A stretch of 64,000 nucleotides of DNA from Flexilinea flocculi (lineage in GTDB: Bacteria; Chloroflexota; Anaerolineae; Anaerolineales; Anaerolineaceae), in NCBI RefSeq assembly GCF_001192795.1, contig NZ_DF968181.1, forward strand, positions 1,231,101 to 1,295,100. Reading direction: 5' to 3'. Position numbers and translations under genes: made by a program. The notes beneath the pieces were generated by a model that made no database searches, was not told the DNA's origin, and was given only the letters and a program-made list of their open reading frames with translations. Position 1 is the stretch's first letter; every line of letters starts with the position of its first letter. Shown in pieces: positions 6,600 to 64,000 of this stretch.

Positions 6600-6602
6600 T
6601 CG

Positions 6603-9476: not shown

Positions 9477-9492
9477 AGTAACTTTTAGAGTA

Positions 9493-9616
9493 CAGTAATT
9501 CGAGATATAGACTTGCTATTTGAATCAATCGGGAAAAACATATTGTTATGACGGTTTTGCGCTTCGCCCAAAACCGTCATAACAATTAAGAATCCTACCT
9601 ATATATCGAATCGCTG
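9493..9616. repeat. Dispersed palindromic element with 17-bp central hairpin
   Basis: The left end is CAGTAATTCGAGATAT and the right end ATATATCGAATCGCTG. The hairpin is 9542-9558 with 9570-9586, a perfect 17-bp stem, capped by GCGCTTCGCCC, which can pair further around a TTC loop. The first 38 bases (9493-9530) recur with two changes at 22410-22447. It lies between convergent genes, so it may serve as a terminator for both. Confidence 0.8.
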
Positions 9617-22296: not shown

Positions 22297-22409
22297 TTTC
22301 ATCCCCCTTCTTTCAGGATATTTCGATTCACAGTTATTGATTTTAACAGAAATTTGGATTTGCAATAAATACCGGTCGTTTGAAAGATGCGAAGGAGTAT
22401 ATGCTTTTG

Positions 22410-46063: not shown

Positions 46064-49000
46064 ATGATAAAAAAACAAAATTTTGCATGGACACAGCCAA
46101 TAATAATTATTGGATTATTATTATGTTTCTTTTTACCCAGTGCTTTGGTTTATGCAGAAGATCCTGTTAATAATACGGTTGCGGAAGAGATCTCCCAACA
46201 ACCTGCCGATTCCCCATCTGTGCCTGCAGTGCCAAGTCCGGAAGAGGCACAACCTGCCCCTCCTACTGATCCTGAACCTGCTGCAATTGAAAATAATACT
46301 TTGGAAAACGCGAATTCCGGTGCGATGCAAAATGAGAGCATTGTCGGTGATCTGAGTCCTATGGATGCGAATCCAACGAATAATACTGCCATCGTCATTG
46401 AATCAGATGCATACCTCAGCACAGCGGATAAGAGCATTTCATCCATCGATGATGAGGTCTATCAGATTCAGGAGGCGAATGAACCGGATTCGATCTCGGA
46501 GCTTTCGTCTCCACAAGGTTCAGACACTGAGGACAATCTTGAAATATTCAGCGTTTTTTCTTCGGAAACCTCCGGCGTGGAACAAATTATTGTCAATCCT
46601 GAAGACGAAAATCCTGATGATGTAATCGATGACGATACAGTGCCGTTATCCTCAGATCCAGATTCAGAAAGCCAGGCGGATTTCTTACCATCGGATGAAA
46701 CCTCGATCGAAAATTCTCCACAAAAGGAATATGTCGATTCCACAGAAGAATCACCGCAAGACGCGACGTTTGATGCTGCGGAAAATTTTCAGTTAAATCA
46801 GACTGAAGAACCTCAGATAGGGGATAATGATCTTTCCTATGAAGATGGAATGCAATCTGAAACAGCCGCTGAAAATACCACTCAAGAACAATTATCAGGT
46901 GGTGATTTGCCGGATCCTAATGAAGGCAATTCGGATGTTACTCAGGACGAAGAATTCGAACAATGCCTGATCGAAGCTGAGCCGGATGGCGCACAAATGG
47001 TTATCGAAAATCCGGATGCCGGATCAGTGCTATCGATCTTGCCGGAAGAGACAACAGTAGTATTGGATCCATATTTCACCAGAGGTGGTGTCAAATACTC
47101 GTTTTTAGCAAATTGCAGCGGAGTTGATAATTGTGAAATAAGTTCTGCTCCGATTCAGGCAGCAATCGACAATGTGAAAGAACATGGTCTTCCAGATGAC
47201 GCTACGATTTATGTGGATGGCGGATCTTATGCAGATAACTTGATTGTTCAAGGTTTTGTTAATCCACTGACACTGAAAAACAGTCAAAATAATTCAAATG
47301 CTGTTACATTGACCAATTCCGTATTGATCAGAGACAACTCAGCATTGATTTCTTTTTGGGGATTTGTTTTCAATCAAGCCATTGCTATAGAAAATAGCAA
47401 TAGCGTTGAGATTCATGGATCCAGCGAAGATGATACTCTTGATCTTAAGCTCAATACCACAGGATTAGGCAGTCTGTCTGTTGATGGTGGCGATGGTACA
47501 GATACAATCATTTTAGACCCGGTAAACTCCGGTACTGTTGAATCACCTATACTTAGTACGATAAATACAACCGGTAACATTGTTGTTAATGCTGAGGACA
47601 TCACCATAAATGCTGAAATAAATGCAGCCAATGTAACACTTACCGCAAATACTGCCGATAGTACAGTGGTTACTGATATCGCGAATGTTGTAGCTAAAAC
47701 GGCAGCGATCAATATTAACAGAAATATTAGCGCCAGTGGAACGTTGACAGCATCAGCCGATGTCGCACGCAACATCGCAATTAACTCAGTCAATAACATT
47801 ACAGACGTTGTGGATGACATTATTACCGGTAAGAATTTCTCCGATTATATCGGAGTAAAACTGAACAGCTCATCATCTGCAAATGTTTTGATCAATAACG
47901 GCGTAACACTCGCTGCTGCTTCTGTTTTATTATCAGCAAAGACTCAAGGAACCGTTTCATTAATTGCCAGTTCGACAGAACTGAGCATCACAAAACTACT
48001 TGCGTATAACATTTTCAACGAGAATGCCATTGTTTCGATGAATGGTGTCACTGCAAATATTCAAAACAGTCTTTCTATGCTTTCTCAAACCGGAATCCAC
48101 TATACGGCAACCGGCAGAGTCGCGCTGAATAAAATCTCAGGTGAAACACGGTCTTCGATCGATACCAGTACAATTACAACCGGATTGTCCGGCAGCGGTG
48201 GAATTAATTTAAGCGCTATCGATAAAATTCAGGCAACCGCCCTTTCTCCTTTGGCAGATTATGTTATGGATTATGATCCCGAAGAGCCGGCTCCTGGAGA
48301 TTTGATGATTGATTTAGCGATCGCTGGTAATCAGTTGGATCGCGATGTTCAAAGTTATATTAAGAATTCAACCGTTACATCAACAGGTGGCGATATCAGC
48401 CTGAAAGCAGAGAAAAATCTGCAGCTCAGTACCCTCGTAAAAGCCAATACCTTCCGTAACTCCGATGATACTTTTCTGAAGCGATCGGCGACCAGTGTCG
48501 GTGGTCTGTTTTCTGCTAATCAGGTCATTGGTGATACGCTGGCATACCTTGAAGGTGGATCAGTTCAGACAATCAGTTCCGGAAATATCGATTTATATGC
48601 CCGGGATTATTCTCAGATCGATGCGAAATCGGAATTCAGCGCTCAGGGAGTTGCTGGAATGCTTCATTTAATAGATTGGACTACCCAGGTCAAGTCAATC
48701 GGTTTTTCTGTGGCAATGAACCTGATGGGATGGAGCGTTGATAATTATTTTGGTAAAGCTCTGGATGATTTAATCGGTACAAATATCGGCGGTACTGAAA
48801 CACCGCTTCTTATTAAAGCTTATATTCAGGATGGCGAAGTCAGTTCGGCAGGTAATATTTCATTGGCGGCTCTGTCTGATCTTAAAATGAACGCTACCGT
48901 CAGTAATGCTGCAGAAAGCACCAGTTCATCCTTGTATGGCGCCAATGGCAGCAGTACCAGCGGTATTCTTGCCAGCAATAAGATCAGTTCCCGTGTGAAG

Positions 49001-52000
49001 TCATATGTTAGCTATACTACACTTCCGGAAACTGTGAACGTATCGGCTGGAGGAGACCTGCTTCTCGATGCAGAGGACAATTCCGAAATTTATGCCAACA
49101 GTAAAGTAGTGTCCACTTCGATCATCACCAACGATGGCGGCATGAATGTACTGAAGGAAGGAATCACTTCTTCCTTTGATTACAAATATACATCGGATTA
49201 TGGATTTACAACTGTAAACTTTGGAGATTCAGTATTATTGACCGATGATTATCTGGATCCGGATTATACGTCTCATCAGGTATTTATCCCGGCTGAAATT
49301 AAATTCGGCAATAAAGTAAAGTTAGATAAGGATACCGGTGGTGGAATGTCCGGAGAAGTCTATAAATATATCGGAACGACTTCACTTCTTAATCCTGACT
49401 TAAAAACACAAGATTATAACGATCCCGGTCTGTGGGTAAAAATTGGTGGGGAAGCGGATACTGTCTATCAGTATATGGGGAGCGGAAGTACGATTGATCT
49501 CGGTATTCAGGATTATACGGATCTTGGATATTGGAAAGAGGTTACCGCTACTCAGTTATTCCCGGAAGGACTGAATGTAACACCATCGAATTCCACATCC
49601 ATTGGCGGGCTGGTTGTCCGGAATGAAATCAATTCTGAGACAGAAAGTTTTATCTCCAAAGCAAATATTAATGTAGCTGGAAACACAAGCCTCCTGGCAA
49701 CCGATAGCTCGACAATTTGGGCAATAGCTGACAGTACTGCGATTTCTTCTGGTGGAAGTGCTTTTGGTGAAGGGAAATCATTGGCTGTCAATGGAACAAT
49801 TGCCACGAATTTGATTCTGAGCAAAGCCAATACGTTCATCACAGACAGTAATCTTACTGTACATGGCGACTTGTCAGTAATTGCGAAAAATACCTCAAAA
49901 ATTGACGCCACTGTCAATGCATTAACTTCAACCGGTGCCAAGGCAGTTGGTGTCACATTGGCATTTAATACCATTGGTTGGAAATCCCAAAATGTCCTGT
50001 TTGCAACTTTAGACGCCTTGCTTGGAACCGGTATTGGCGATTCTCAGGCCGCAGAGGTAAAAGCATTTATTCAGGATACCATTCTTGCAATTTCTGGCGC
50101 GGTAACGATGATTGCAAATTCATTTGCTGAGTTGATTGCCACGGTAACCAATGAAACTACATCGATTGCTTCTGCATTGGTGAATGCGACCGGGAAAGCG
50201 ACAAGCGGTGTCCTGGCAAGCAATATGATCAACACGCTTGCAAAAGCATTCCTGTTATTTACATTAAGTCCTAAGATCGTCACAATAAATGGAAAGCTTA
50301 CCATCACTGCTGAAGACACGTCCCGGATTATTTCCAGCAGTAAACTGGTTGCAACCTCATCAACTTCCAATAATCTGGGGGCAAGTCTGGTAAACCAGCT
50401 TGGACAGACGTTGATGAATGATTATCGCTATACGACAAATTCAGGTATCCGGACAGTTGCTTCCGGCGAAATGGTTCGGCTGGCAGATGATTATGACAGC
50501 GATCTTGGCGTACCCGGTACCATTTATCAATATCTGGGAACTACAAGTTTTTCATATGATCTTGGTACATTAGATTTTGCCAATAGTGCGCTATGGAAAC
50601 AAATAACAGTTTTAGATTTGGTTCCAGCATCATTGAATATAACCGGTTCTGATGCTGTTGCGGTTGGTGTGCTGGTAGTTCGCAACGATGTTCGTACGGA
50701 TACAGAAGCCTATATCAGTAATCTCGATATTAATTCGATCGAAGATTTCATTCTTTGCGCATACGAAAATTCTGAAATACAGGCGAAAATTGTCAGTGTG
50801 GCGGAAGCCAGCGGCGGCAGTGCGTTAGGAGAAGGAACTGTCTGGGCGGTAAATGGCACGATTGCAACCAACCAGGTGCTTTCCAAAGCGAATGCGTATA
50901 TTGTGGATAGTTCTGTTACGAATACTACCGGTACTACCAATATTACGCTTACAGCTGAAAATAATACCCTGATCGATGCAACTGTACTCAGTGCCACAAT
51001 GTCTGGTGATACTGCCATTGGTGTTACCCTGGCTTTCAATAAAATCGGCTGGGAACCACAGAATTTACTTTTTGATACGATCGATGCACTGATCACAACG
51101 GATATCGGCAATGAAAAACCGGTGGAGGTCCAGGCTTATATAAAGGATACAAACATCGAAATTTTAGGTGAGCTTTCACTTTCTGCGGTTTCAAATGCAA
51201 TGGTGAATGCAACGCTGAGCAACGCGGTCAGTTCTGCTGCATCAGCCTTGTATGATGCGAATGGCAAAAGTGGATCCTTCATGCTGGCAAGCAACATGGT
51301 CAGCAGCTTCGCTAATGCATACATTGATTATTCGAATACCGGCTCTGTTATTACAGGTGGTGCATTGAGCATCGTTGCAGAAGATAACGCTGTTATCTAT
51401 TCCAATGCCAAGCTGGTGTCTTCATCCATTACCACCAATGACGGTGGTCTATCCTTGATCAGCAATTCAGTGACCGATCTGGTGGATGTGATATCAGTCG
51501 ACCATGTCAGTGGTGAGACTTCGGTATTATTAGAGTTTGGAGACCAGGTTCGTCTTGCTGAAGATTATGACACAGAAAATGGAAAACCAGGCGGAATTTA
51601 CAAATATTTAGGTGCAGATTTATCTACACCACAAAATTTAAGTACCACCAATTATCTGGATCTTGGTTATTGGATCGAAGTACCGGAAACAAATCTCGTA
51701 CCAACAGGACTCAATTTTTCAGATTCTAACTCAAACGCTTTAGGTGCTTTGGTCGTGCGTAATGATGTTCGCAGTGGCGTTGAAGCGTATATTCAATATG
51801 CAAGTGTAACGTCAGACAGCATCAATATGACCGCAATTGAAAGCGCGGCTATCAGTGCGATTTCTGATAGTACTGCGGAGTCATCAGGCGGTAATTCCAT
51901 TGGTGGTACGGGAGATTCGTTAGCTGCCAGCGGAACGATCGCGACAAACCTGGTTTTAAGTTCAGCCCTCGCGTTTATTAAAGACTGCAGTATCAAAACG

Positions 52001-55000
52001 AATACTGGTGATCTTGTGATGAGCGCTGCGAATAGTTCCTCAATTAATGCAGAAACTTTAACCATGGCATCCTCCGGTGCAAATGCCTTTGGCTTGATTC
52101 TGGCTTTCAACACAGTTGGCTGGAAGGCTCAGAATGTCCTCTTCAATACGGTTGACGCTCTCTTGGGAGATCCGCTGATTGCAAGTTCGTTGGGGAATGA
52201 AGATCCATCACGCGTAGAGGCATTTATTCTGGATTCCAGTTTGGATGTGGCAGGATATCTAACGTTAACTGCGATTTCCAATGCAAGCATTACTTCCAAT
52301 GTCGGAAATAATGCTACTTCTGCTCCTACAGCACTATTCGGCGCCGGTGGAACATCTGTAGGAATTATTTTAGCCAGTAATATGGTCAGCAGTTATGCCA
52401 AAGCTTATATTGATATCCCTGAAATTACCTATACCAGTGATCAAACAGTCGTTGCATTAATACCAGGTTTTGTAGTTCAAATAAAAACAAATATTACCTT
52501 TGATGAGAACACTACTTTTTCAGCCGGCGATGTTTACGAATATATTGGGGCAGAGTTATACTCAGTACCTCTTGGTTCGAACACAATCGAATTGGCTGCC
52601 CAGAATTATGGAAATTCGCAGAATTGGCGTAAAATCAGTCATCTTTCATCGATTGTTACCGGCGGAAATATTTCGATGCTGGCTCAGGATGATGCAGCAA
52701 TCCATGCTGAGACGCAAATGCTGGCTTCAGTGGAGCCCAGTAATGATGCCGGTATGGGCATAATCAATAATCTGGCAAATACATGGCTCGAATCGTATGA
52801 ATATACCAGTAATTCGGGTAGCCGTCTGATGGATTTTGGCACAATGGTGCGGGTGGCAGATGATTATGCCAATACAAAAGCTGAACCAGGAACCATATAT
52901 CAGTTTATGGGAGCAACTCCGATATCGTTTGATCTTGGTACGACGGATTACTTAGATTACGCTTATTGGAAACCACTATCGCAATACACATTGATCAGCG
53001 ATTCTGTCGTTTATACAGCGTTGGAAGAAATCGGACAGAAATATAAAAAAGAGGGCCTAAATGGATCGGCTAAAGTAATTTATGGATTGATTGACCGGAA
53101 TGATGTGCGGAGTGAAGTCCTTGCATATATTAATGATTCAACCATTAATACAACCGGCGATATCAGCCTAAGCGCTCTGGAGAGTGCGGCAATTACCGTC
53201 TTAGATAACAGCGTTGTTTCGACGTATGAAGGCGGAGGCGGCATTATTACAACCAATATTGTCCTGAGTAAAGCCAATGCATATATTACGAACAGCAGTG
53301 TTGTTACGACAGCTAAAGATGCAATTAATCCGGGCAATTTGATTCTCAATGCGAAAAACAACTCATTCATTGAGGCGACAGCAAACAGTGAAGTTTCTGG
53401 ATGGGACAAGACAGTTTCCTTCATTGTGGCTTTTAATACGATTGGATGGAAAGCAGAAAATATCCTTTTTGCGGCGGTAGATGCCATCCTCGGTGATCCG
53501 CTTATCGCAAGCGCATTTAATGGCGAACAGCCCGCAGAGACTTATGCGTATATAAAAGATAGCACGATTGATATTACAGGTCAGTTATCGCTTTCAGCGG
53601 ATAATAAAGCGCAACTGATTGCATCAGTAGGTAGCAGTGCATTTTCAGACGCGGCTACTGATCTGGTGTTCTCCGCAAAATATCAGGGGACGGCAGTCAG
53701 CGGCGGTGGAATTCTGGCAAGCAATAAAGTGAGCAGCCGCGCAAAAGCCTACATTACATTTTCCACAACGGAACTTGAGCAGACCAATACGATCATTGCG
53801 GATATGGGAATTGCTATTTTTGCATCTGACGAAGCATTAATCGATTCTCAAGCATATGTTCTGCAGAGCGCTGTTTCCACCAATACCATTTCTGAAGGGC
53901 TCGGCGCTGTTGCTGCAGGATTTTTCCCGGATGACTATCAATATACGACGCTTTCAGGTACACAGGCGCTCACAGCATTTAGCCCTACATCATCGGTTCT
54001 AAGTAAATTTTTCCGAGTGAAATTCAGTGATATACATATCCCAACAATGGTTGGCAAGGGAGTCAATGGCAGCATTTATGAATATATCGGTGAACCTGGC
54101 GTAATTGATCTGGGTACAGAGAACTATAACGATGAGCTAAAATGGAAAGTCGTGACTTTAACAGTAGAAGATTATTTCCCGAATTTAGGAAATGTAACTT
54201 CTTCGGATGCGAAGGCGATTGGTTTCCTGGTGGTTTATAACGAAGTCCGCAGTGAAGTTCTGGCTTATATTGAAAAAGCGAATGTGACAAGCGGGGGGGA
54301 CCTATCATTAGAAGCTGTTGATAACGCGACATTAAAATCTTTCGCAGAAATCAATGTGAATGCTTCCGGCGGCAGTAATATGGGGGCTGGTGAGGTGAAG
54401 GCTTATAATGGACAGCTTGTATCCAATTTACTCCAAAGTAAAGCGAACACTTATATTAATACAAGTATTGTAATGACAACTGGTACAGCATCGGTCACCT
54501 TAAATGCAGAAAACTCTTCCATATTGGATGCAACGATTATGAGCATCACTTCCAGCGGTGATACTGCGGTAGGTGTAGTCCTGGCATTCAACACAATCGG
54601 CTGGGAATCCGAAAATGTACTTTTCAAAACAGTAGATGCGCTGTTATGTACGGATATTGGATCGGAAAAACCAGCTGAAGTACAAGCCTATTTGCTTAAC
54701 ACACCTGTAACAGCAGCAGGAAATCTTATCCTGAGCGCGATCAATAAGACGCAATTAAATGCCACGATCAGCAATGCAGCCAGCTCTGCTGCCTCTGCGT
54801 TGAAAAATGCCAATGGCAAGAGTGTCGGTATGGTACTGGCGAGCAATATGGTCAGCAGCTTGGCAAAGGCTTACATCACTTTCGATACGATGCCCACTGC
54901 AACAACCAACCTGATTACTGTAACTGGAACGCTCGATATCAATGCTGTCGATGACGCTTCGATTTATGCCAATGTTAAACTGGTAAATACTTCGGTTACT

Positions 55001-58000
55001 TCCAATAATGGAGGATTAGGCATTATCAGTGAAACATTAAATGATCAATTGCCGGCTGATTACTCCAGTACTGAAAGCGCCAGATTAAAATTTGGTAATC
55101 GCGTACGGTTAGCCGATGATTACGGAGCTTATTTCCTGTCACAGGATGCTATTAACGCCATCGCAAAAGAAATCCCGCAAGAAGTGATCGATAAATTAGC
55201 ATCTATGATCGATACAGAGTTTTCAACCGAACAGGCATTGGAACTTGAACTCACTCGCCATCTCTCTGCTTATGAATTGCTGGCTTACGAAGACATCATT
55301 CTTGAAAACATGGATTATAAGGGCGGAAAGCCGGGCGCAATTTATGTCTATATGGGCGACGATTTTGCGGATACCGATGATCCTCTCGATTTGAGTACAG
55401 TGGATTACACTGATTTGGCTTATTGGAAGCTGTCTCCTGAAACCGATATTATTCCCGAAGATATTAATGTAACGGATTCGAATGCGGTTTCGGTTGGCGG
55501 TCTGGCTGTTCGTAATGACTTAAGGAGCCTGGTTGAAGCCTATATCAGTAAAGCAACCGTCGAAAGTGGAAATACTCTGAATATTAAGGTAGATGAAAGC
55601 GCTGTCGTATTCGCAAAAACCGACAGCAACGTGTTGTCCTCTGGCGGAAGCAATGAAGGAAAAGGTGATTCGATCGCAGTCAACGGTGTGATTGTTACCA
55701 ATCTGATTCTCAGCAAAGCGGAAGCATTTATTAAAGACAGTATCATCACTGTTAAAAATTTCGGCGACCTGAATCTTGATGCGGAAAACAATTCCCTTAT
55801 AAAAGCAATCAACTTGAGTACGATAACCGCTGCCGGGAAAGCAGTTGGTGTTACGCTCGCTTTTAACACTGTCGGCTGGCTTGCACAGAATCTGCTATTC
55901 AATACCGTTGATGCATTAATCGGATCACCTGAAATAGCCCAGGCAATGGGCAATGAATCGCCTGCCAGAACCCTGGCTTATATTTTGAATTCTAAAATCA
56001 GGGTTGGCGGCGATCTAAGTATCAAAGCAGTTAATGCAGCGGTCCTGCACGCGAAAGTAAGTAATGAAGCTTCTTCAACGGTTTGTTCTTTATATGATGA
56101 TGAACAGACGGCTGCCGGAGCAATTCTTGCCAGCAACATGGTCAGCAGCATGGCGAAAGCTTACATCGATTATAAGGCTTATAACTGGACCAGCAGCGAT
56201 GGCACTCAATTAATCCTACCGGGCTATTTAGTAAAAAGGAATTCAGACGGGAAGATTTACGAATACGTTGCTGATTTATCAAATTCTACCGATCCGCTTG
56301 CATTCCTTGGCTTAAATTTAATCAATCTCGGTATTACAGATTATCGTGATACCGCAATCTGGAGACTTTATACCCCAATAACAGGCATTGCCACCGTTGT
56401 TAGCGGAGGCGGATTTGACATTTACGCCTCTGATGATGCAACCATCTTTTCTGAAGTGGACCTTTCCGTTCTTGCCAGCACACAGAATGATTACGGCATC
56501 AGTATTATCGTGGATGCGGCAATGAAAGTACTTCTGGATTACGGTTATACGACGCGTTCTGGAAGCTTCATTATCCCGGATTACGAAGAAGATGAATTCT
56601 ATCTTCCAATTCGAGTCCGAGTGGATGAAGGTTATCAATCAAGAACTGGAAAAACTGGATTGCCCGGCCGTCTCTATGAATATATCGGGCCTGATAATAC
56701 GATCATCGATTTGGGCGCTATCAATTATAAAGATAATCCGAACTGGGTATTGATCCCAACAATTGATGATATTGTCGGCTATGATTACAGCACTGCTTCC
56801 GGATCAATTTCTGTTGCAACCGGGGAAAAAGTTAAAGCTGAGAATGATTATGATGATACGCTGGCTGAACCCGGTTATATTTACGAATTTATCGGAACCG
56901 GTCAGACGATTGACCTTGGGAATGAGAATTACCTGGATTCCACTCGCTGGAAGAAGTTATTCTCAATCGGTGAAATCCTGGCTCCTCTTAAATTTTTGAC
57001 GAACTTTACAGGATCACCATCCACTGCAGTGGGAGGGATGGTCGTACGCAATGATGTTCGCAGCAATGTTGAAAGTTACATCAGTAACCAGACAACCGTG
57101 GATGTTGGACAAAACTTAAATATATCCGCTTACGAAAATGCTGTGATCATTGCAAAAGATCGCAGCGAAGTCACCTCATATGGCAGCAGCGCATTCAAGA
57201 AGGGAAATTCTATCGCAGTCAATGCGATAATTTCCACGAACCTGGTGCTTAGTTCCGCAAAAGCATATATTTCAAATGTTTACGGAACAACAACCTTGAT
57301 TGCCGGTGGAAACCTGAACCTTATTGCGAAGAATAATTCGTTTATCGAAGCAACGGTTGAAAACAAGACGCTGTCCAATGGCGTTTCAGTGGGAGTTACA
57401 CTGGCTTTCAATACAATCGGCTGGGATGCCCAAAATATCCTGTTTAATACAATTGATGCAATATTGGGAACATTGATCGGAACCAAGCAACCCGCTGCAA
57501 CAATCGCTTTTATCGAAAAAACAAATATTGCTGTCGACGGATTTCTGTCAGTCATCGCTGAGAGCCTGGCGAAAATTACTGCTGAGATTAAAAATGCCGC
57601 AGTCGCAATTTCCGGCAGCTTTGCCGAAGACACCAAAGCGGTTACAGTAGGCGTGGTTATCGCGATGAACAAGATCAGCACTGCGATCAAAGCATTCGCT
57701 CAGGAAGCAGCTTCGATTGTAGCAAAAATGGGTAACAGCAGTGACCTGATGAATGCGATTGCATTCAGCGCGGTCAACAGTTCAATCGTATTTGCGAGGG
57801 TAAAGAGCTCTTCGATTTCGGTCACGGCCAGCGCCAAAAAATCCGTTTCTGTCGCGGTGGGAGTAAGCATTGCAAATAATGAAATTGATGATGATTTGGC
57901 AACTTATGTGAATAATACAGGTATTTTACAGACTGATTCAGGCAATGTGTCAGTGTATGCCCAGGAAAATGCGAATATCGATTCAATTACTTCTGCAACG

Positions 58001-61000
58001 GCTATATCGATTGGAATCAGCGCATCAGGCGGTGCAAAGAGCTTCAGTGGCGGCGGAGCCATCGCTGTCAATCTGATCAAAGGCAACGCAAATGCTTATA
58101 TTAGTAACAGCGACACCGACTCTGCTGGAACCATTACAATCAGCGCTTATAACAATTCCGACATTTTAGCGCGAGTTGACAGCAGCGCTGTGGCGATTGC
58201 ATTAAGTGCCAGTGGAACTACTGCTGGTGGTGCGATTGGAATATCGTTAGCCCGAAATACCATTGCATATGATCGTGATTATGAATATGAAAGCACACCG
58301 TGGGCTGGACCTTACAACGATTACACGTCAATAGAGACTCTATCAGAATTGCTGAATGGTAAACGCGTATATTTGGATACGGATCTGGATGGTTGTAAAG
58401 CCGGAGAAGTTTACGAATATATTGGCAGCAGCATACTAACTGGTCCGATCGATCTGAGAAATCAGACCTATAGCAATCCCGCGCTTTGGAAGAAGATTGT
58501 TAATGCTCAGTATCTGCAAACGGGTGATAAAGTAAAACTTTCTGATGGTTATGACAATACCAAAGGAGACGGTGGAAGTATTTATGAGTATAAAGGCACT
58601 GCAGGGCTGGTGGATATTGGACTGACTGATTATACCAATACAACTCTTTGGACGAAAACAGATGGAATTAGCGGGAATCCACTGCAGGTTTACGCCTATA
58701 TTCAAAACTCTGATATCACAGCCGACGGACAGGTGACAATCGATGCGAAAGCAGACAGCAGTATCGTAGCTGAAGTATATGCTGCAGCGGTAGCGATTTC
58801 AGCTTCTTCTGATAAATCCGGGGCTTTAAGTGCCGGTGGCGTAGTTACGATTAATCGAATTTTTAGTGATGTACAAGCTTATATTGACACCGCTGATTCC
58901 GTTACAATCAGCACTGGCGATTTGATAATCCATGCAGAAGACAACTCGATTTTGGACGTAAAAGCCCTTTCAGCAGCGGTTTCGGGCAATCTTTCCGGAT
59001 CAAATGGTGGTGCGTTGGCAATCGGAATTTCCTATGCCCGCAATATAATTCATAGCGGGGCTATTGCCTATATTGCAAATGTCAGCAATCTTCATGTGAA
59101 TAATGGAAAAGTGGAAATCAATTCACTTCGCAACTCCATGATTGATGCAATTGCTGCCGCTGCTGCAGTTTCCTTGAGCGGAACCGGATCTAATAGCGTT
59201 GCATTCAGTGCTGGCGGCGCTATTGCAGAGAATAATATTCTTGGGAAAACCAATTCGTATATTCTTTCCAGTACTGTAACAACCAGCGGCGATGTACTGA
59301 TAAACGCAACGAATCTGTCCACCATCCACGCGATGGTGCTATCCGTTTCCGGAGCCATCAGTTTCGCAGGCAGTACAGGTGTTGCGGTTTCAATCGGTGT
59401 ATCAGTCGCCCGGAACTTTATTGGTTATGGTTTGACCGGCGGTTATACGCCAATTGAAGTAAAAGCTTATATTCAAGATTCCAATATCAACTGCGGCGGT
59501 GCGTTATCCCTGATTGCGCAAGAACCAACTAATGAACTCTTTGCTTTGAGCACAACCTTTATAAATACATTGGATGATGCCGGGACACAGGATGAGGATG
59601 ATCCTGATACAGTCGGTGTATATGAAGATCAGATTGATGCAGCAAACGATCTAACCTTATTAGGTCAGTTAAAAGCTGAATTCCAAACAAAAGGTGTTAC
59701 GCTCTCCAACGATCTGGTCGTTACAATCATCAAAGAAGGAAGTGAATGGATTTTACGTGATCGATACGGTAAAGGGTATAAGATTACCAAAACCGGATCA
59801 GTGTTGAACATCGAGAATACGATGCTGATTAATGCCGAAGTTTTATCCGGATCTGTTGCAATTGCCGGTAGTGGAAGCACTGCAGTTTCTTTGAGCGGTG
59901 CAGGCGTGTATGTCGAAAATAAAATTGCCACAATTGTGAAATCCTATCTTGATAATGATCTTATTAAAGATATTTTTGCGGATTCCATATCAATCAGAGC
60001 GCTGGATGGATCAACCATCACTGTGACAGCAGGTGCAGCATCGGTTGCCGGGGCAGTTTCGGGAAGCGCCGGAGTTGCAGTTTCGATTGGCCTGGCAATT
60101 GCTCGTAACCAAATCAATAATATTGTTGAAGCCTATATTTCAGATGCGGATAACCTCAAAACAACGGCCGGCGGCGTACTGGTTGAAGCAATCAGTAACG
60201 CCGTGATTCATGCAATCTCTGCAGCAGCTTCGGTTTCCATCGGCGGCGGTGGAACAGCAGGTGTTGCGATTGGTGGCGGCGGTGCAATCGCACAAAATAT
60301 TATCCTGGGTAAGACCAACGCTTATATTTCAAATAGTGATTTGGAAATTACCGGTGGCAATCTGAGCTTGCTGGCTCAAAACACTTCGGAAATCCATGCG
60401 ATTGTTGCGGTTGCGTCTGCTGCAGCCGCTTTAGGGGGGACAGCCGGTGTGGGCGTATCGATTGGAATTTCGGTAGCAATCAACCGGATAGGTTGGGAAG
60501 CTGATTATCTTTACACGACGAATTCACTCAATCAAATGGTTCAATCGGGTGATACTGTCAAGTTGGCAGACGATTATCAGACAGTCTATGAAGAAGTTCA
60601 AGATATCTCTGACTCGGATGGTGATGGCAGTACAACCGATATGGTTTTCAAGAAAGTCCCTGATGTAAATGATACAGATGGTGATGGTGACAAAGATGAG
60701 CTGATTTTCCAGCCAATTCAGTTAAACAAGGGAGAACCAGGAGCAATTTACCGTTATATCGGCCAACCTGATACGCTGAATTTAGGTGACCAGGATTATA
60801 CCAATACCGCATTATGGAAAAAAGCAACCGGTGATCCCACCGCAGTACCTGCGGAAATCCAGGCATATATATTAAATTCAAAAATATTGGTAACCGGTTC
60901 GGTTTCGATTCAAGCTGATGCCGATGAATCGATTGAAGCAGTTGTTATGGCTGGTTCTGTTGCGATCGGACTGGGCGGTACAGTGGGTGTAGCAGTCAGT

Positions 61001-64000
61001 GGCGCTGCGGTGTATACCGAGAATAAAATTTCTACATTGGTCCAGGCATTTATTGCTGATACGAACAGTCTGTTGGGTAATGCTTCTACAACCATTCGGG
61101 CAGCAAGCCTGGATATGGATGCGAAGGATAATTCTACAATCCATGCGATTGCGGGCGCAGCATCCGTAGCTGCTTCAGTTAGCGGTATTGCTGGAGTATC
61201 CGTTTCAATTGGTCTCAGCATGGCATTTAATGAAATCAATAATGAAGTTAAAGCATTCCTTTATCAGGTTGATTATGCCGAATCGACCGGTGGATCAATA
61301 AGCATTGCCTCTACCGAAACAGCTTCAATTGAAGCAATATCTGCAGCAGCTTCAGTAGCTTTGGCCGGTAGTTTTGTCGGTGTAGCCGTAGCGGGTGGCG
61401 GTGCGGTTGCTTCCAATGTGATTTTAGGAAAGACCAACGCATATATTGATACAAGCATCATTAAAAGTTTTTCAGATGTGATCTTATCAGTAACGAACAC
61501 ATCGGTTATTAAAGCAAATGTGATTTCTGCAGCTGCATCGCTGGGCGTCGGTTTTGTGGGAGTAGCAGTCTCTTTGGGAGGATCCATTGCGATCAACCGG
61601 ATCGGATATACTGCTTCGGATTCCATGAATCCAATTGAAGTAAAAGCATATATTACCAATTCCAGTATTAATGCTGGTGGGCTACTAAGTCTTACTGCCA
61701 GTGCAAATCCAACGATCCAAGCTCTTACAGCAGCTGGATCCGTTGCAATTTCTGGCGGTTTTGTTGGCGTGAGCGGTTCTGTTGCGGCAGCAGTTGCTGA
61801 GAATAAGATGGCAGCCAGTATTCAGGCATATTCATCAAACGCCATCAGTCCTTATGTAATTGTTGGTTCTTTGAGTTTCCAAGCACAGGACGCCTCAATC
61901 ATAACCGCAACAACCGAGGCTGTGTCATTGGCAGGTGCTTTTGGAGCGGTTGGTGTATCAATTTCGATAGGCGCTGCTGATGCCAAAAATACAATTACGA
62001 ACAATGTGACTGCATCAATTTCGAATTCAGCTGGTGTAATAGCCAACATCGGTGCAATCATTCTGGAAGCAATCGAAAATGCAAACATTAATGCAACGAG
62101 TGGAGCAGCATCAGCATCTGCTGCTATTGGAGCAGTAGGAGTTGCCCTGAGCGGTGCCGGTGCAAATGCGATTAATGTCATTCAATCAAAGGCAACTGCT
62201 TATGTGGTGAACAGTAATTTGTCAGCAACGGGAACAAATACATCTTTGGATGTCAGAGCCGGCGATATCGATGTTCTTGCCAGTAATATGGCATCGATCA
62301 CAGCACTGATTTTAACTTCCAGTGGTTCTGTAGGAGGCGGTGGAGTTGGAGTGGCTGGTTCCATTGGCGTTGGAATATCTCGGAACTATATCGGATATGA
62401 TTCCAACGGGAATCCATTGACGGAAGCTGACGCAGCTCAGAGCAAAGCCTATATTATGGATTCCAGTGTGACAGCTGTCGATGATCTGCAGGTTAAAGCA
62501 ATTTCAAATCAGACGATCGATGCGTCCGTCCTTTCCGGTTCAGTTGCAATTGCCGGTGGTGCCGTAGCAGTTGGTGCTACTGCAGCCGGTGCAAGCGCTT
62601 ATAACTATATTGGAATGATTGTCAAAGCCTATCTGCATGGTGTTGTAAATCTAAGTGCCGACAGTATTACGATCTTAGCAAAAGATACATCCTCGATTAA
62701 CGCGTTAGCCGGTTCAGCGTCTCTGGCATTCACAATTGGCGGCGTCAGTGTTGCTATTTCTGTTGGTGCAGGCACAGCAGTCAACGTGATTAGTACGGTA
62801 GTCGAAGCCTATATTGAAGATACGAATAGTAATGTGACTTATTCCAGCTCTCAGGGAAATAAATACTTATCCAACGGTACCCGAATCTATGTCGAAAAGA
62901 ACTATGCTCCTGTTGATTTTTCAGTGATTTATGCCAGTCAACCGGAATCAGTAAAATACGGTGATAATGTATTGCTTTCTGATGATTATGCAGTACCAGA
63001 TTATACCTATGTCAATGGAGTATCACAGTCAGTTGCGCTAGAATATGGCGATTATGTGAAAGCATCTACTGATTTAGTTTATAAATATATCGGATCGGGT
63101 TACAAAAGTACCGGACTGAATATTGATTTGAAAGATGTAATATTTACTGATTCAACAAAGTGGGTAAAAGTCAGCGGGCAAGCTGGCCGAATTTACAAGT
63201 ATTTAGGGACAGACGGATCAATTAATATTGCGCGACAAGATTATGATAACTCCTCTATTTGGAGAATAATCGGTGGAATTGAGGGAAATGTTTATGCATA
63301 TCTCGGTGCTGATGCTTCTGTTAACCTGAGTTTTCAAGATTATCAAAACAGTAGCTTATGGCGAGATGTCAGTATTGGAGATATTACGATTGAAGCAGTC
63401 GAAAGTGCTACGATTACGGCTAAAGCAATGGCTGCCAGCGCAGCAGCCGCTATTGGCGGAGTTGGAATCGGTTTCAGTGGCGCAGGCGCAGATGTGAAAA
63501 ATGTGATCCTGACGGACACATCGGCTCATATCAACAATAGCACGATTCATCAAAGCGGTTCTTTGAATATCCATGCCAATAATGATGCTGTGATCCATGC
63601 TGAAGTTTTATCTGCTTCTGCGGCATTAGGCGGCGGTGTGTTAAGTGGAGCCGTTTCGATCGGTTCTTCCACAGCGAAAAACTATGTGGGATATAAACTG
63701 GATGATACGAGTAATCCTCTGATCGTTAAGGCATATATTACGAACAGTAATCTATACATCGGCGGAAATGTTGATATTACCGCCGAAATGGAAGCCTCCA
63801 TAACCGCAACGGTTGGCGTAGCATCCGCATCAGCCGCAGCAGGGTTGATCGCAGGAGCGATCAGCGGAGCAGGAGCCGATGTACAGAATAAAATCGCTTC
63901 CAACGTTTTTGCATATATCAGCCATTCGACAGGCGGTATTCTTAAAACAGATGGAAGTATTTCGATACTGGCTCAGGACACGTCCACAATCAACGCTTCT
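46064..64000 (+). CDS. Giant secreted repeat protein (partial, runs off the window)
   Basis: At least 5979 codons with no stop; I followed the frame in detail through the first kilobase and at several later points. The start is set by a signal peptide beginning at the ATG at 46064 (MIKKQNFAWTQP, a hydrophobic core, cleavage near VYAED). The ribosome site is weak. Residues about 35-330 are acidic, low-complexity and rich in E, D, S and P. About 340-500 resembles a right-handed beta-helix start (ATIYVDGGSYADNLIV; GGDGTDTIIL). The remainder is imperfect repeats of the AYIxxSxV / GxLxLxAxDxSxI / AxxxSxA type, as in large adhesins such as LktA-like proteins. A second module reads ADDYDxxxGxPGxIYxYxG followed by DLGxxDYxDxxxW. 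It is probably a cell-surface or released adhesin, matrix or contact protein (inference). The C-terminus and anchoring mode lie outside the window. Confidence 0.85.
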   Translation, partial: MIKKQNFAWTQPIIIIGLLLCFFLPSALVYAEDPVNNTVAEEISQQPADSPSVPAVPSPEEAQPAPPTDPEPAAIENNTLENANSGAMQNESIVGDLSPMDANPTNNTAIVIESDAYLSTADKSISSIDDEVYQIQEANEPDSISELSSPQGSDTEDNLEIFSVFSSETSGVEQIIVNPEDENPDDVIDDDTVPLSSDPDSESQADFLPSDETSIENSPQKEYVDSTEESPQDATFDAAENFQLNQTEEPQIGDNDLSYEDGMQSETAAENTTQEQLSGGDLPDPNEGNSDVTQDEEFEQCLIEAEPDGAQMVIENPDAGSVLSILPEETTVVLDPYFTRGGVKYSFLANCSGVDNCEISSAPIQAAIDNVKEHGLPDDATIYVDGGSYADNLIVQGFVNPLTLKNSQNNSNAVTLTNSVLIRDNSALISFWGFVFNQAIAIENSNSVEIHGSSEDDTLDLKLNTTGLGSLSVDGGDGTDTIILDPVNSGTVESPILSTINTTGNIVVNAEDITINAEINAANVTLTANTADSTVVTDIANVVAKTAAININRNISASGTLTASADVARNIAINSVNNITDVVDDIITGKNFSDYIGVKLNSSSSANVLINNGVTLAAASVLLSAKTQGTVSLIASSTELSITKLLAYNIFNENAIVSMNGVTANIQNSLSMLSQTGIHYTATGRVALNKISGETRSSIDTSTITTGLSGSGGINLSAIDKIQATALSPLADYVMDYDPEEPAPGDLMIDLAIAGNQLDRDVQSYIKNSTVTSTGGDISLKAEKNLQLSTLVKANTFRNSDDTFLKRSATSVGGLFSANQVIGDTLAYLEGGSVQTISSGNIDLYARDYSQIDAKSEFSAQGVAGMLHLIDWTTQVKSIGFSVAMNLMGWSVDNYFGKALDDLIGTNIGGTETPLLIKAYIQDGEVSSAGNISLAALSDLKMNATVSNAAESTSSSLYGANGSSTSGILASNKISSRVKSYVSYTTLPETVNVSAGGDLLLDAEDNSEIYANSKVVSTSIITNDGGMNVLKEGITSSFDYKYTSDYGFTTVNFGDSVLLTDDYLDPDYTSHQVFIPAEIKFGNKVKLDKDTGGGMSGEVYKYIGTTSLLNPDLKTQDYNDPGLWVKIGGEADTVYQYMGSGSTIDLGIQDYTDLGYWKEVTATQLFPEGLNVTPSNSTSIGGLVVRNEINSETESFISKANINVAGNTSLLATDSSTIWAIADSTAISSGGSAFGEGKSLAVNGTIATNLILSKANTFITDSNLTVHGDLSVIAKNTSKIDATVNALTSTGAKAVGVTLAFNTIGWKSQNVLFATLDALLGTGIGDSQAAEVKAFIQDTILAISGAVTMIANSFAELIATVTNETTSIASALVNATGKATSGVLASNMINTLAKAFLLFTLSPKIVTINGKLTITAEDTSRIISSSKLVATSSTSNNLGASLVNQLGQTLMNDYRYTTNSGIRTVASGEMVRLADDYDSDLGVPGTIYQYLGTTSFSYDLGTLDFANSALWKQITVLDLVPASLNITGSDAVAVGVLVVRNDVRTDTEAYISNLDINSIEDFILCAYENSEIQAKIVSVAEASGGSALGEGTVWAVNGTIATNQVLSKANAYIVDSSVTNTTGTTNITLTAENNTLIDATVLSATMSGDTAIGVTLAFNKIGWEPQNLLFDTIDALITTDIGNEKPVEVQAYIKDTNIEILGELSLSAVSNAMVNATLSNAVSSAASALYDANGKSGSFMLASNMVSSFANAYIDYSNTGSVITGGALSIVAEDNAVIYSNAKLVSSSITTNDGGLSLISNSVTDLVDVISVDHVSGETSVLLEFGDQVRLAEDYDTENGKPGGIYKYLGADLSTPQNLSTTNYLDLGYWIEVPETNLVPTGLNFSDSNSNALGALVVRNDVRSGVEAYIQYASVTSDSINMTAIESAAISAISDSTAESSGGNSIGGTGDSLAASGTIATNLVLSSALAFIKDCSIKTNTGDLVMSAANSSSINAETLTMASSGANAFGLILAFNTVGWKAQNVLFNTVDALLGDPLIASSLGNEDPSRVEAFILDSSLDVAGYLTLTAISNASITSNVGNNATSAPTALFGAGGTSVGIILASNMVSSYAKAYIDIPEITYTSDQTVVALIPGFVVQIKTNITFDENTTFSAGDVYEYIGAELYSVPLGSNTIELAAQNYGNSQNWRKISHLSSIVTGGNISMLAQDDAAIHAETQMLASVEPSNDAGMGIINNLANTWLESYEYTSNSGSRLMDFGTMVRVADDYANTKAEPGTIYQFMGATPISFDLGTTDYLDYAYWKPLSQYTLISDSVVYTALEEIGQKYKKEGLNGSAKVIYGLIDRNDVRSEVLAYINDSTINTTGDISLSALESAAITVLDNSVVSTYEGGGGIITTNIVLSKANAYITNSSVVTTAKDAINPGNLILNAKNNSFIEATANSEVSGWDKTVSFIVAFNTIGWKAENILFAAVDAILGDPLIASAFNGEQPAETYAYIKDSTIDITGQLSLSADNKAQLIASVGSSAFSDAATDLVFSAKYQGTAVSGGGILASNKVSSRAKAYITFSTTELEQTNTIIADMGIAIFASDEALIDSQAYVLQSAVSTNTISEGLGAVAAGFFPDDYQYTTLSGTQALTAFSPTSSVLSKFFRVKFSDIHIPTMVGKGVNGSIYEYIGEPGVIDLGTENYNDELKWKVVTLTVEDYFPNLGNVTSSDAKAIGFLVVYNEVRSEVLAYIEKANVTSGGDLSLEAVDNATLKSFAEINVNASGGSNMGAGEVKAYNGQLVSNLLQSKANTYINTSIVMTTGTASVTLNAENSSILDATIMSITSSGDTAVGVVLAFNTIGWESENVLFKTVDALLCTDIGSEKPAEVQAYLLNTPVTAAGNLILSAINKTQLNATISNAASSAASALKNANGKSVGMVLASNMVSSLAKAYITFDTMPTATTNLITVTGTLDINAVDDASIYANVKLVNTSVTSNNGGLGIISETLNDQLPADYSSTESARLKFGNRVRLADDYGAYFLSQDAINAIAKEIPQEVIDKLASMIDTEFSTEQALELELTRHLSAYELLAYEDIILENMDYKGGKPGAIYVYMGDDFADTDDPLDLSTVDYTDLAYWKLSPETDIIPEDINVTDSNAVSVGGLAVRNDLRSLVEAYISKATVESGNTLNIKVDESAVVFAKTDSNVLSSGGSNEGKGDSIAVNGVIVTNLILSKAEAFIKDSIITVKNFGDLNLDAENNSLIKAINLSTITAAGKAVGVTLAFNTVGWLAQNLLFNTVDALIGSPEIAQAMGNESPARTLAYILNSKIRVGGDLSIKAVNAAVLHAKVSNEASSTVCSLYDDEQTAAGAILASNMVSSMAKAYIDYKAYNWTSSDGTQLILPGYLVKRNSDGKIYEYVADLSNSTDPLAFLGLNLINLGITDYRDTAIWRLYTPITGIATVVSGGGFDIYASDDATIFSEVDLSVLASTQNDYGISIIVDAAMKVLLDYGYTTRSGSFIIPDYEEDEFYLPIRVRVDEGYQSRTGKTGLPGRLYEYIGPDNTIIDLGAINYKDNPNWVLIPTIDDIVGYDYSTASGSISVATGEKVKAENDYDDTLAEPGYIYEFIGTGQTIDLGNENYLDSTRWKKLFSIGEILAPLKFLTNFTGSPSTAVGGMVVRNDVRSNVESYISNQTTVDVGQNLNISAYENAVIIAKDRSEVTSYGSSAFKKGNSIAVNAIISTNLVLSSAKAYISNVYGTTTLIAGGNLNLIAKNNSFIEATVENKTLSNGVSVGVTLAFNTIGWDAQNILFNTIDAILGTLIGTKQPAATIAFIEKTNIAVDGFLSVIAESLAKITAEIKNAAVAISGSFAEDTKAVTVGVVIAMNKISTAIKAFAQEAASIVAKMGNSSDLMNAIAFSAVNSSIVFARVKSSSISVTASAKKSVSVAVGVSIANNEIDDDLATYVNNTGILQTDSGNVSVYAQENANIDSITSATAISIGISASGGAKSFSGGGAIAVNLIKGNANAYISNSDTDSAGTITISAYNNSDILARVDSSAVAIALSASGTTAGGAIGISLARNTIAYDRDYEYESTPWAGPYNDYTSIETLSELLNGKRVYLDTDLDGCKAGEVYEYIGSSILTGPIDLRNQTYSNPALWKKIVNAQYLQTGDKVKLSDGYDNTKGDGGSIYEYKGTAGLVDIGLTDYTNTTLWTKTDGISGNPLQVYAYIQNSDITADGQVTIDAKADSSIVAEVYAAAVAISASSDKSGALSAGGVVTINRIFSDVQAYIDTADSVTISTGDLIIHAEDNSILDVKALSAAVSGNLSGSNGGALAIGISYARNIIHSGAIAYIANVSNLHVNNGKVEINSLRNSMIDAIAAAAAVSLSGTGSNSVAFSAGGAIAENNILGKTNSYILSSTVTTSGDVLINATNLSTIHAMVLSVSGAISFAGSTGVAVSIGVSVARNFIGYGLTGGYTPIEVKAYIQDSNINCGGALSLIAQEPTNELFALSTTFINTLDDAGTQDEDDPDTVGVYEDQIDAANDLTLLGQLKAEFQTKGVTLSNDLVVTIIKEGSEWILRDRYGKGYKITKTGSVLNIENTMLINAEVLSGSVAIAGSGSTAVSLSGAGVYVENKIATIVKSYLDNDLIKDIFADSISIRALDGSTITVTAGAASVAGAVSGSAGVAVSIGLAIARNQINNIVEAYISDADNLKTTAGGVLVEAISNAVIHAISAAASVSIGGGGTAGVAIGGGGAIAQNIILGKTNAYISNSDLEITGGNLSLLAQNTSEIHAIVAVASAAAALGGTAGVGVSIGISVAINRIGWEADYLYTTNSLNQMVQSGDTVKLADDYQTVYEEVQDISDSDGDGSTTDMVFKKVPDVNDTDGDGDKDELIFQPIQLNKGEPGAIYRYIGQPDTLNLGDQDYTNTALWKKATGDPTAVPAEIQAYILNSKILVTGSVSIQADADESIEAVVMAGSVAIGLGGTVGVAVSGAAVYTENKISTLVQAFIADTNSLLGNASTTIRAASLDMDAKDNSTIHAIAGAASVAASVSGIAGVSVSIGLSMAFNEINNEVKAFLYQVDYAESTGGSISIASTETASIEAISAAASVALAGSFVGVAVAGGGAVASNVILGKTNAYIDTSIIKSFSDVILSVTNTSVIKANVISAAASLGVGFVGVAVSLGGSIAINRIGYTASDSMNPIEVKAYITNSSINAGGLLSLTASANPTIQALTAAGSVAISGGFVGVSGSVAAAVAENKMAASIQAYSSNAISPYVIVGSLSFQAQDASIITATTEAVSLAGAFGAVGVSISIGAADAKNTITNNVTASISNSAGVIANIGAIILEAIENANINATSGAASASAAIGAVGVALSGAGANAINVIQSKATAYVVNSNLSATGTNTSLDVRAGDIDVLASNMASITALILTSSGSVGGGGVGVAGSIGVGISRNYIGYDSNGNPLTEADAAQSKAYIMDSSVTAVDDLQVKAISNQTIDASVLSGSVAIAGGAVAVGATAAGASAYNYIGMIVKAYLHGVVNLSADSITILAKDTSSINALAGSASLAFTIGGVSVAISVGAGTAVNVISTVVEAYIEDTNSNVTYSSSQGNKYLSNGTRIYVEKNYAPVDFSVIYASQPESVKYGDNVLLSDDYAVPDYTYVNGVSQSVALEYGDYVKASTDLVYKYIGSGYKSTGLNIDLKDVIFTDSTKWVKVSGQAGRIYKYLGTDGSINIARQDYDNSSIWRIIGGIEGNVYAYLGADASVNLSFQDYQNSSLWRDVSIGDITIEAVESATITAKAMAASAAAAIGGVGIGFSGAGADVKNVILTDTSAHINNSTIHQSGSLNIHANNDAVIHAEVLSASAALGGGVLSGAVSIGSSTAKNYVGYKLDDTSNPLIVKAYITNSNLYIGGNVDITAEMEASITATVGVASASAAAGLIAGAISGAGADVQNKIASNVFAYISHSTGGILKTDGSISILAQDTSTINAS
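48712..57480 (+). repeat. Higher-order coding repeat, first array (about 1.1-1.5 kb units)
   Basis: A landmark of the form NTIGWxxQNVLFxTVDALLG occurs eight times, near 48.72, 49.97, 51.04, 52.11, 53.44, 54.59, 55.86 and 57.41 kb (the first divergent). Spacings run from 1.07 to 1.55 kb. Each unit carries in order a YxYxG/DLGxxDY module, VVRNDVRS, GTIATNLxLSKANAYI, the landmark, a KAYI segment, SNAxxS, ASNMVSSxAKAYID and KLVSSSxTTNDGG. The units are diverged in DNA, so this is an old amplification. Confidence 0.8.
58240..63760 (+). repeat. Higher-order coding repeat, second array (glycine/alanine-rich)
   Basis: Units here are marked by an ARNxIGY-like landmark followed by IEVKAYI, near 58.25, 59.41, 60.48, 61.59, 62.38 and 63.67 kb. 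They are richer in G, A, S and V (for example AAASVSIGGGGTAGVAIGGG) than the first array. YxYxG/DY modules recur near 58.4, 58.55, 60.7, 63.08, 63.2 and 63.3 kb. Confidence 0.7.

What the first reader, a model, noticed from the sequence alone, without database searches (positions are those of the whole stretch)
46064..64000. Giant secreted protein of more than 5979 residues
An uninterrupted frame of at least 17.9 kb with a signal peptide, acidic stalk-like start and thousands of beta-type repeat residues is among the larger class of bacterial genes. In this group it may build cell-to-cell or filament contact structures.
Basis: partly seen in the sequence, partly recalled or inferred. Interest (0 to 1): 0.65.

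Follow-up and report, generated by a model that had tools for sequence, protein, structure and literature searches.

The report
Giant mosaic bacterial surface-type protein
A single uninterrupted bacterial gene encodes an 18,250-residue protein with an export signal and adhesin-type repeats, and its parts look stitched together from relatives' surface proteins and from giant proteins of unrelated phyla.

Summary
The frame opening at 46064 runs past the window to 100816: ATG to TAA, 18,250 aa, no stop. The genome shares an order with an assembly that NCBI names Anaerolineae (Chloroflexota). Parts: Sec-type signal peptide; acidic linker; 56-58 LktA-type repeats with small inserts (15 by pattern, 21 by profile, two of them beyond the arm); core; cadherin/tandem-95 domains; about 8,000 residues of RTX repeats; a C-terminal domain whose predicted fold resembles GAIN/ZU5. 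The kind is known: at least 12 of 36 genomes searched hold such frames above 10,000 aa; 18,250 was the longest I met. New here is a mosaic. The LktA arm (aa 401-6200) matches giants of other phyla best in 57 of 58 windows, the own family in 0; the RTX half (aa 10201-17900) matches family members best in 77 of 77. Three congeners share core and C-terminal domain, not this arm, whose profile rings in 2 of 400 genomes of the order. Diderm relatives with a covered start bear an LEPR-XLL-like motif; this one has a signal peptide. Most likely an adhesive surface fibre; adhesion, location and insert ligand are untested.

The parts
46064..64000 (+). Giant gene, part inside the window (aa 1-5979 of 18,250; the stop is at window coordinate 100816, outside)
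46064..46159 (+). Sec-type signal peptide, aa 1-32
   Evidence: hydropathy and reading of the N-terminus; no signal-peptide predictor was run
46160..47053 (+). Acidic, proline-containing linker, aa 33-330 (75 D/E, 2 K/R, 28 P)
   Evidence: frames of congeners G001 and G008 also show P/E-rich stretches near their open starts
47054..47443 (+). Cap region, aa 331-460: 26% over 124 aa to a beta-helix-type frame of the same family; aa 330-760 match G560 best (113 bits), the Betaproteobacteria locus L048 next (80 bits)
48344..64000 (+). LktA-type repeat arm, aa 761-5979 in the window (to aa 6176 in the whole gene); 56-58 units of about 61 aa
   Evidence: NCBIfam NF012206, 331.3 and 291.5 bits on two overlapping pieces, cut-off 50; units counted; AlphaFold2 model of aa 1807-2114, pLDDT 89.3
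49259..49549 (+). Two small inserts (aa 1066-1128, 1126-1162)
   Evidence: profile of inserts
50405..50608 (+). Small insert (aa 1448-1515)
51482..51688 (+). Small insert (aa 1807-1875), modelled; weak CBM5/12-like fold match
52403..52984 (+). Two small inserts (aa 2114-2192, 2238-2307)
53978..54160 (+). Small insert (aa 2639-2699)
55301..55441 (+). Small insert (aa 3080-3126)
56159..56374 (+). Small insert (aa 3366-3437, weaker, 9e-7)
56612..56959 (+). Two small inserts (aa 3517-3565, 3571-3632)
58316..58666 (+). Two small inserts (aa 4085-4146, 4149-4201)
60725..60832 (+). Small insert (aa 4888-4923)
62999..63373 (+). Cluster of three inserts (aa 5646-5770, the first weak)
43752..45566 (-). 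Divergent neighbour: TPR protein with a hydrophobic N-terminus, 604 aa; a TPR protein lies in the same place beside the giant gene of family member G560
   Evidence: 28% over 364 aa, TPR repeats

Best explanation
The gene makes an 18,250-residue protein exported through Sec. Outside, it should fold as an extended fibre: an acidic flexible linker, a long beta-solenoid of LktA-type repeats studded with about twenty small modules, cadherin/tandem-95 domains, and about 8,000 residues of RTX beta-roll repeats that fold on calcium. It ends in a domain with a GAIN/ZU5-like predicted fold that other frames of this bacterial family also carry. The likely job is adhesion or building the matrix of aggregates. 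The gene is a mosaic: its N-terminal arm is of the type found in LEPR-XLL giants of diderm phyla and was most likely acquired horizontally into a scaffold (signal peptide and cap, core, RTX part, C-terminal domain) shared with relatives. Shown: intact frame, domain order, repeat families, mosaic similarity. Inferred: Sec export, calcium folding, surface location, adhesion, direction of the arm exchange.
For: Intact frame. LktA_tand_53 331.3 and 291.5 bits, cut-off 50. RTX PF00353 at 1.3e-18, 1.8e-13 and 1.6e-28 on three pieces, Big_9 at 4.7e-41. 71 GGxGxD motifs, nearly all in aa 8001-18000. In the second model the RTX part aligns with solved RTX blocks at Z about 11 and the C-terminal domain with GAIN, ZU5 and FIIND chains at Z 8.1-10.2. 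The C-terminal domain aligns with three congeners and four shorter frames of the family. Mosaic: for aa 401-6200 the best match is in other phyla in 57 of 58 windows and in the family in 0; for aa 10201-17900 it is in the family in 77 of 77 (29 proteins compared). Core aa 6200-7480 groups with three congeners at 100/100. Over aa 1-4400 of G009 and of G001 the own protein is not among the six best matches, while the congeners are. The arm profile rings in 2 of 400 genomes of the order. The inserts are absent from the fetched frames of G560, G009, G001, G011, G133, G137 and G212.
Against: No expression, localisation or binding data. The arm GC3 (0.34-0.42) equals that of 14 neighbouring genes (0.38), so a recent transfer is not indicated; it is the RTX part that stands out (0.49-0.53). 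The other-phylum proteins were recruited with patterns taken from this arm, which favours them there, and they may lack the closest RTX relatives. The arm profile was built from three rows of this gene and may miss distant arms. Between aa 6201 and 8700 the best matches are mixed (12 family, 13 other of 25 windows). The core tree puts the genus clade next to a Rhodocyclales sequence (89/91), so the ancestral genus protein might itself have had a diderm-type arm that congeners replaced. The C-terminal model is only fair (mean pLDDT 66, about 81 in the domain).
Confidence: 0.67

Rival explanations
1. The mosaic reflects unequal loss and divergence, not transfer into this species: the common ancestor had this arm, and the congeners and G560 lost or replaced theirs.
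For: The core aa 6200-7480 of the genus lies next to a Rhodocyclales sequence and among other Pseudomonadota sequences; the arm GC3 equals that of the genome.
Against: The arm profile rings in 2 of 400 genomes of the order, with G001, G008 and G009 examined and negative; arms of G009 and G001 resemble other congeners and then, weakly, G560 and phylum members.
Confidence: 0.3
2. It is a structural coat, sheath or cell-to-cell contact protein rather than an adhesin for outside targets.
For: Size, negative charge and beta-solenoid; an exopolysaccharide gene cluster and an LCP protein lie downstream; Anaerolineae are described as growing in aggregates (PMC10608941, passages seen).
Against: No self-assembly or SLH domain listed up to E 0.1; nothing specific for contacts.
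Confidence: 0.3
3. It is an exoprotein for attacking or degrading other cells or polymers.
For: RTX repeats also occur in toxins and proteases, and the LktA repeat is named after a leukotoxin (recalled); 4 of 17 relatives carry HExxHxxGxx[HD] motifs.
Against: No catalytic family reaches its cut-off: PF08548 (serralysin C terminal, 62.7 and 37.6 bits over a cut-off of 20.7) is a repeat-type C-terminal region, and the NCBIfam toxin, protease and esterase subfamily hits in the repeats lie far below their cut-offs. No HExxH motif in this protein.
Confidence: 0.08
4. An assembly artefact or a decaying gene read as one frame.
For: The genome is estimated 97.15% complete and 2.01% contaminated; homologues in G001 and G011 are split into several frames as assembled.
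Against: 18,250 codons without a stop; unbroken homologues in G560 and G009; aligned core.
Confidence: 0.03

Closest known systems
Giant LEPR-XLL-type LktA/RTX proteins of Pseudomonadota, Myxococcota and Verrucomicrobiota
   Same: LktA arm with the same inserts; matches to own aa of roughly 430-7300 and 8000-9500, and RTX-type parts
   Different: They start with an LEPR-XLL-like motif (8 of 8 with a covered start, one as LEQRVLL); this one has none in aa 1-400 but a Sec-type signal peptide, a C-terminal domain of its lineage and the longest frame met
Giant proteins of family member G560 (15,355 aa) and congener G009 (7,907 aa)
   Same: G560: cap, aa 8760-9480 (52%) and RTX half (33-41%); G009: core and C-terminal domain
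   Different: Their arms hold only 5-6 weak LktA units by my profile (more, 14 and 17, by NF012206) and none of the inserts
NCBIfam NF012206 LktA_tand_53, tandem repeat-containing filamentous protein
   Same: The repeat scores far above the curated cut-off
   Different: The model describes a repeat only, not the whole protein
RTX adhesins (LapA, 1.5-MDa MpIBP; PMC7493085, abstract start and passages)
   Same: Giant, RTX repeats, long extender
   Different: Those are described with beta-sandwich extenders and type I secretion (PMC6650083, abstract start); here a Sec-type N-terminus and a solenoid arm
Giant ORFs of Omnitrophota (39,678 aa in V. archaeovorus; PMC10066038, passages seen)
   Same: Scale, suggested adhesion or contact role
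   Different: That ORF has 42 predicted transmembrane helices and most of them few annotated domains

Membership tests
LktA_tand_53 repeat proteins (NF012206) | Whole-protein score over the curated cut-off of 50 bits | tested here: met
   331.3 bits (20 stretches) and 291.5 bits (16 stretches) on two overlapping pieces
RTX proteins | Nonapeptide calcium-binding repeats over the Pfam cut-off (PF00353, 23 bits) | tested here: met
   67.1, 50.6 and 98.7 bits on three pieces; fold match to solved RTX blocks
RTX proteins | Export by type I secretion | not tested
   The Sec-type N-terminus argues against it; secretion genes were not sought
LEPR-XLL giant proteins | LEPR-XLL motif near the N-terminus (motif name recalled) | tested here: not met
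   None in aa 1-400; present in 8 of 17 relatives examined, among them all 8 diderm ones with a covered start
CBM5/12 carbohydrate-binding modules (the inserts) | Sequence match to PF02839 | tested here: not met
   No hit in 8 inserts up to E 10; own genome without a match; hhalign probability 0.25%, as in the unrelated control (0.29%), while modules of G133/G137 give 92.3%
CBM5/12 carbohydrate-binding modules (the inserts) | Shared fold | tested here: inconclusive
   6 of 20 listed entries are chitinase or chitin-deacetylase entries matched at the insert, Z 3.0-4.1, 43-50 residues, rmsd 2.1-3.0; phage tail and baseplate proteins match the insert as well (8kec, Z 4.4)
GAIN/ZU5 domains (C-terminal domain) | Fold | tested here: inconclusive
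   Z 8.1-10.2 over 118-137 residues, 7-11% identity, to GAIN, ZU5 and FIIND chains; model pLDDT about 81 in this part
GAIN/ZU5 domains (C-terminal domain) | Autoproteolytic His-Leu/Ser-Thr type site (recalled) | tested here: not met
   No H[LIVM][STC] in the last 250 residues
Two-partner-secretion filamentous haemagglutinins | N-terminal haemagglutination-activity (TPS) domain | tested here: not met
   No such Pfam family listed in aa 1-4500 up to E 0.1
LPxTG sortase substrates | C-terminal LPxTG, hydrophobic stretch, basic tail | tested here: not met
   Only an LPGTA at residue 14638; no hydrophobic stretch near the C-terminus

The most novel reading that the evidence does not exclude
Giant bacterial surface proteins evolve by exchanging whole multi-thousand-residue arms between phyla and across envelope types.
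Probability: 0.5. Interest if true: 0.62.

Novelty: new variant of a known kind. Interest (0 to 1): 0.5.

Why it matters
Giant ORFs of some groups are described as poorly conserved with few annotated domains (PMC10066038, passages). Here sequence comparison resolves one into parts with different histories, one shared across phyla, which gives a concrete model for how such genes arise and change. The protein also shows that the same arm type can follow either an LEPR-XLL start or a Sec-type signal peptide, which bears on how these proteins leave different kinds of cell. Within Anaerolineae, where genes over 5000 bp are noted as comparably prevalent (PMC10608941, passages), it is a defined candidate for aggregate adhesion.

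Tried and rejected
The relatives search with a 1000-aa piece found nothing in 60 other genomes. That was a sensitivity failure: the NF012206 profile found repeats in 6 of 147 family genomes, own included. The first genome-contig scan, with 176 aa of the linker end and cap, found no relative.

CBM5/12 for the inserts: suggested by the fold, not supported at sequence level. FapC amyloid: Foldseek E 1.8e-4 but rmsd 22 and Z 2.3, kept only as a hint of a beta-solenoid. Searches of PDB chains by sequence found nothing up to E 1. Phylum by 16S: at most 75% over the gene to cyanobacterial and actinobacterial genomes, and a 55-base fragment in G460, not decisive. The order was settled because G674 (same order) and G460 (the genome of record L057) show the same contig numbers, coordinates and frame lengths. 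Promoter scan: 4 sites, 3.5 expected, uninformative. The aa 8760-9480 tree joins this protein with G560, but with a long Rhodocyclales branch in the same group, so that link rests on identity (52%). Searches of the paper library listed nothing whose title or abstract start describes this protein or such an arm exchange; only listings were seen for most papers, and passages for four: PMC10608941, PMC11573180, PMC7493085, PMC10066038.

Full report
OBSERVATION. The frame at 46064..64000 is real. The window is G000:C3:1231101-1295100 of a 3.51-Mb genome in three contigs. Stretches beyond the window overlap exactly and carry the same frame on to 100816, giving 18,250 residues and 1.90 MDa. Random occurrence is excluded (log10 P about -519), and homologues of 15,355 and 7,907 aa are unbroken in G560 and G009.

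ORGANISM. G674 of the same order has the same contig numbers, coordinates and frame lengths as G460, the genome of record L057, which NCBI names an uncultured Anaerolineae bacterium of Chloroflexota. So the window's genome belongs to that order.

ANATOMY. aa 1-32 look like a Sec signal peptide. aa 33-330 are acidic (75 D/E against 2 K/R). aa 331-460 resemble the start of a beta-helix-type frame of the family (26% over 124 aa). aa 761-6176 hold LktA-type units: 56 and 58 by two profiles, of NF012206, far over the cut-off. Small inserts number 15 by pattern and 21 by profile, four of these weak, with two of the 21 at aa 7495-7607, beyond the arm. aa 6200-9480 are a core without clear Pfam families. 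Big_9, tandem-95 and cadherin-like domains follow around aa 9500-9870, and RTX repeats from about aa 10180 to 17990. aa 18036-18179 align as a separate domain. Pfam lists only two sub-cut-off families (E 0.033 and 0.086) in aa 1-5979, so this arm would be missed by Pfam alone.

STRUCTURE. The arm piece aa 1807-2114 is predicted with pLDDT 89.3 from 61 rows: long strands, as in a broad beta-solenoid. Fold matches of the repeats are weak: SufB/SufD beta-helices, Z 4.5 at best. The insert aligns with chitinase or chitin-deacetylase entries in six of the twenty listed rows at Z 3.0-4.1, and also with phage tail and baseplate proteins. Sequence tests do not support membership of CBM5/12. Phylum members G133 and G137 do carry Pfam-recognised CBM5/12 modules in or beside their LktA arms, which keeps a glycan-binding role open. 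The last part (pLDDT 66, eight rows) matches solved RTX blocks (Z about 11) and GAIN, ZU5 and FIIND chains (Z 8.1-10.2). No GPS-type cleavage motif is present.

RELATIVES. With NF012206, 4 of 400 genomes of the phylum, 6 of 147 of the family and 9 of 400 of the order match, own genome included in each. The second genome-contig scan found 122 confirmed stretches of 191 and kept 73 loci: 50 Pseudomonadota, 6 Actinomycetota, 5 Planctomycetota, 4 Cyanobacteriota, 2 Verrucomicrobiota, one each of Zixiibacteriota, Chloroflexota and Myxococcota, 3 unassigned. Many frames are cut by contig ends, so sizes are minima. Of 17 relatives read in full or in part, 8 have an LEPR-XLL-like motif, all of them Pseudomonadota, Myxococcota or Verrucomicrobiota records with a covered start. 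Knoellia and G212 show signal-peptide-like starts and hydrophobic C-termini instead, and G137 a signal-peptide-like start.

MOSAIC. In 200-aa windows against 29 fetched proteins or fragments (20 of other phyla, 5 of the family, 3 phylum members and G460), aa 401-6200 gave 57 of 58 best matches in other phyla, 1 in a phylum member or G460, 0 in the family. aa 6201-7500 gave 8 family and 5 other of 13; aa 7501-8700 gave 4 and 8 of 12; aa 8701-9500 gave 8 of 8 family; aa 9501-10200 gave 4 and 3 of 7; aa 10201-17900 gave 77 of 77 family; the last two windows were family. Of the first four windows, 2 were family, 1 other and 1 without a match. The core aa 6200-7480 groups with three congeners at 100/100 and next with a Rhodocyclales sequence at 89/91, while G560 stands apart on a long branch. 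Over aa 1-4400 of G009 and G001 the own protein is not among the six best matches. The inserts and the A[FR]NxIGW motif are absent from the fetched frames of the congeners, G560, G133, G137 and G212; for the other-phylum loci the motif was part of the search pattern, so its presence there proves nothing. The arm profile hits 2 of 400 genomes of the order, own and G674, with G001, G008 and G009 among the negatives. I read this as an arm of diderm type placed in a lineage scaffold. Caveats: the far set was recruited by arm patterns; GC3 of the arm equals that of the genome while the RTX part is GC3-richer; polarity is not proven.

C-TERMINAL DOMAIN. It is found complete on the giants of the own genome, G009, G011 and G001 and on a shorter G014 frame, and in part on other frames of 212-1070 aa. 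29 of 147 family genomes rang, but many hits cover only the RTX columns of the profile. In the own genome the last 271 aa match only themselves. It looks like a terminal module of exported proteins in this family; anchoring is inference.

NEIGHBOURS. A divergent TPR protein with a hydrophobic N-terminus lies upstream; G560 has a TPR protein in the same place (28% over 364 aa), but TPR similarity is partly generic, and G009 has different neighbours. Downstream lie a photolyase, an LCP protein and exopolysaccharide genes with a Mutator-family transposase.

VERDICT. A real, very large, mosaic member of a widespread kind. The adhesive-fibre function is the best inference, not a result.

Noticed in passing
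window 43752-45566 (-) and L178:1720-3027 (-): Homologous TPR proteins with hydrophobic N-termini sit divergently beside the giant gene in two genera; possible assembly or export partner.
   Followed up: partly
L004:19033-19935 and L005 (window coordinates about 102533-121362): LCP protein, then an exopolysaccharide cluster downstream: sugar transferase, glycosyltransferases, Wzz-type kinase, LMW phosphatase, with a Mutator-family transposase inside.
   Followed up: partly
G133:C36:17924-18301 and G137:C16:58272-68609: Pfam-recognised CBM5/12 modules inside other giant proteins of the phylum, in or beside the LktA arm.
   Followed up: partly
aa 11001-17000 of the giant protein (L003, L004): RTX part has GC3 of 0.49-0.53 against 0.38 in neighbouring genes, which might point to a separate origin or to repeat expansion.
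   Followed up: no
window 3714-6599 (+): Protein with HEAT repeats and a glycosyltransferase family 2 domain that also matches Chitin_synth_2.
   Followed up: no
window 19816-22365 (-): Fused pyridine-nucleotide-disulphide oxidoreductase, rhodanese, TusA and DsrE-type domains in one protein.
   Followed up: no
G468, G454, G466 and G486 giant frames: Metzincin-like HExxHxxGxx[HD] motifs near the ends of giant relatives (4 of 17), absent here; they may mark a processing domain.
   Followed up: no
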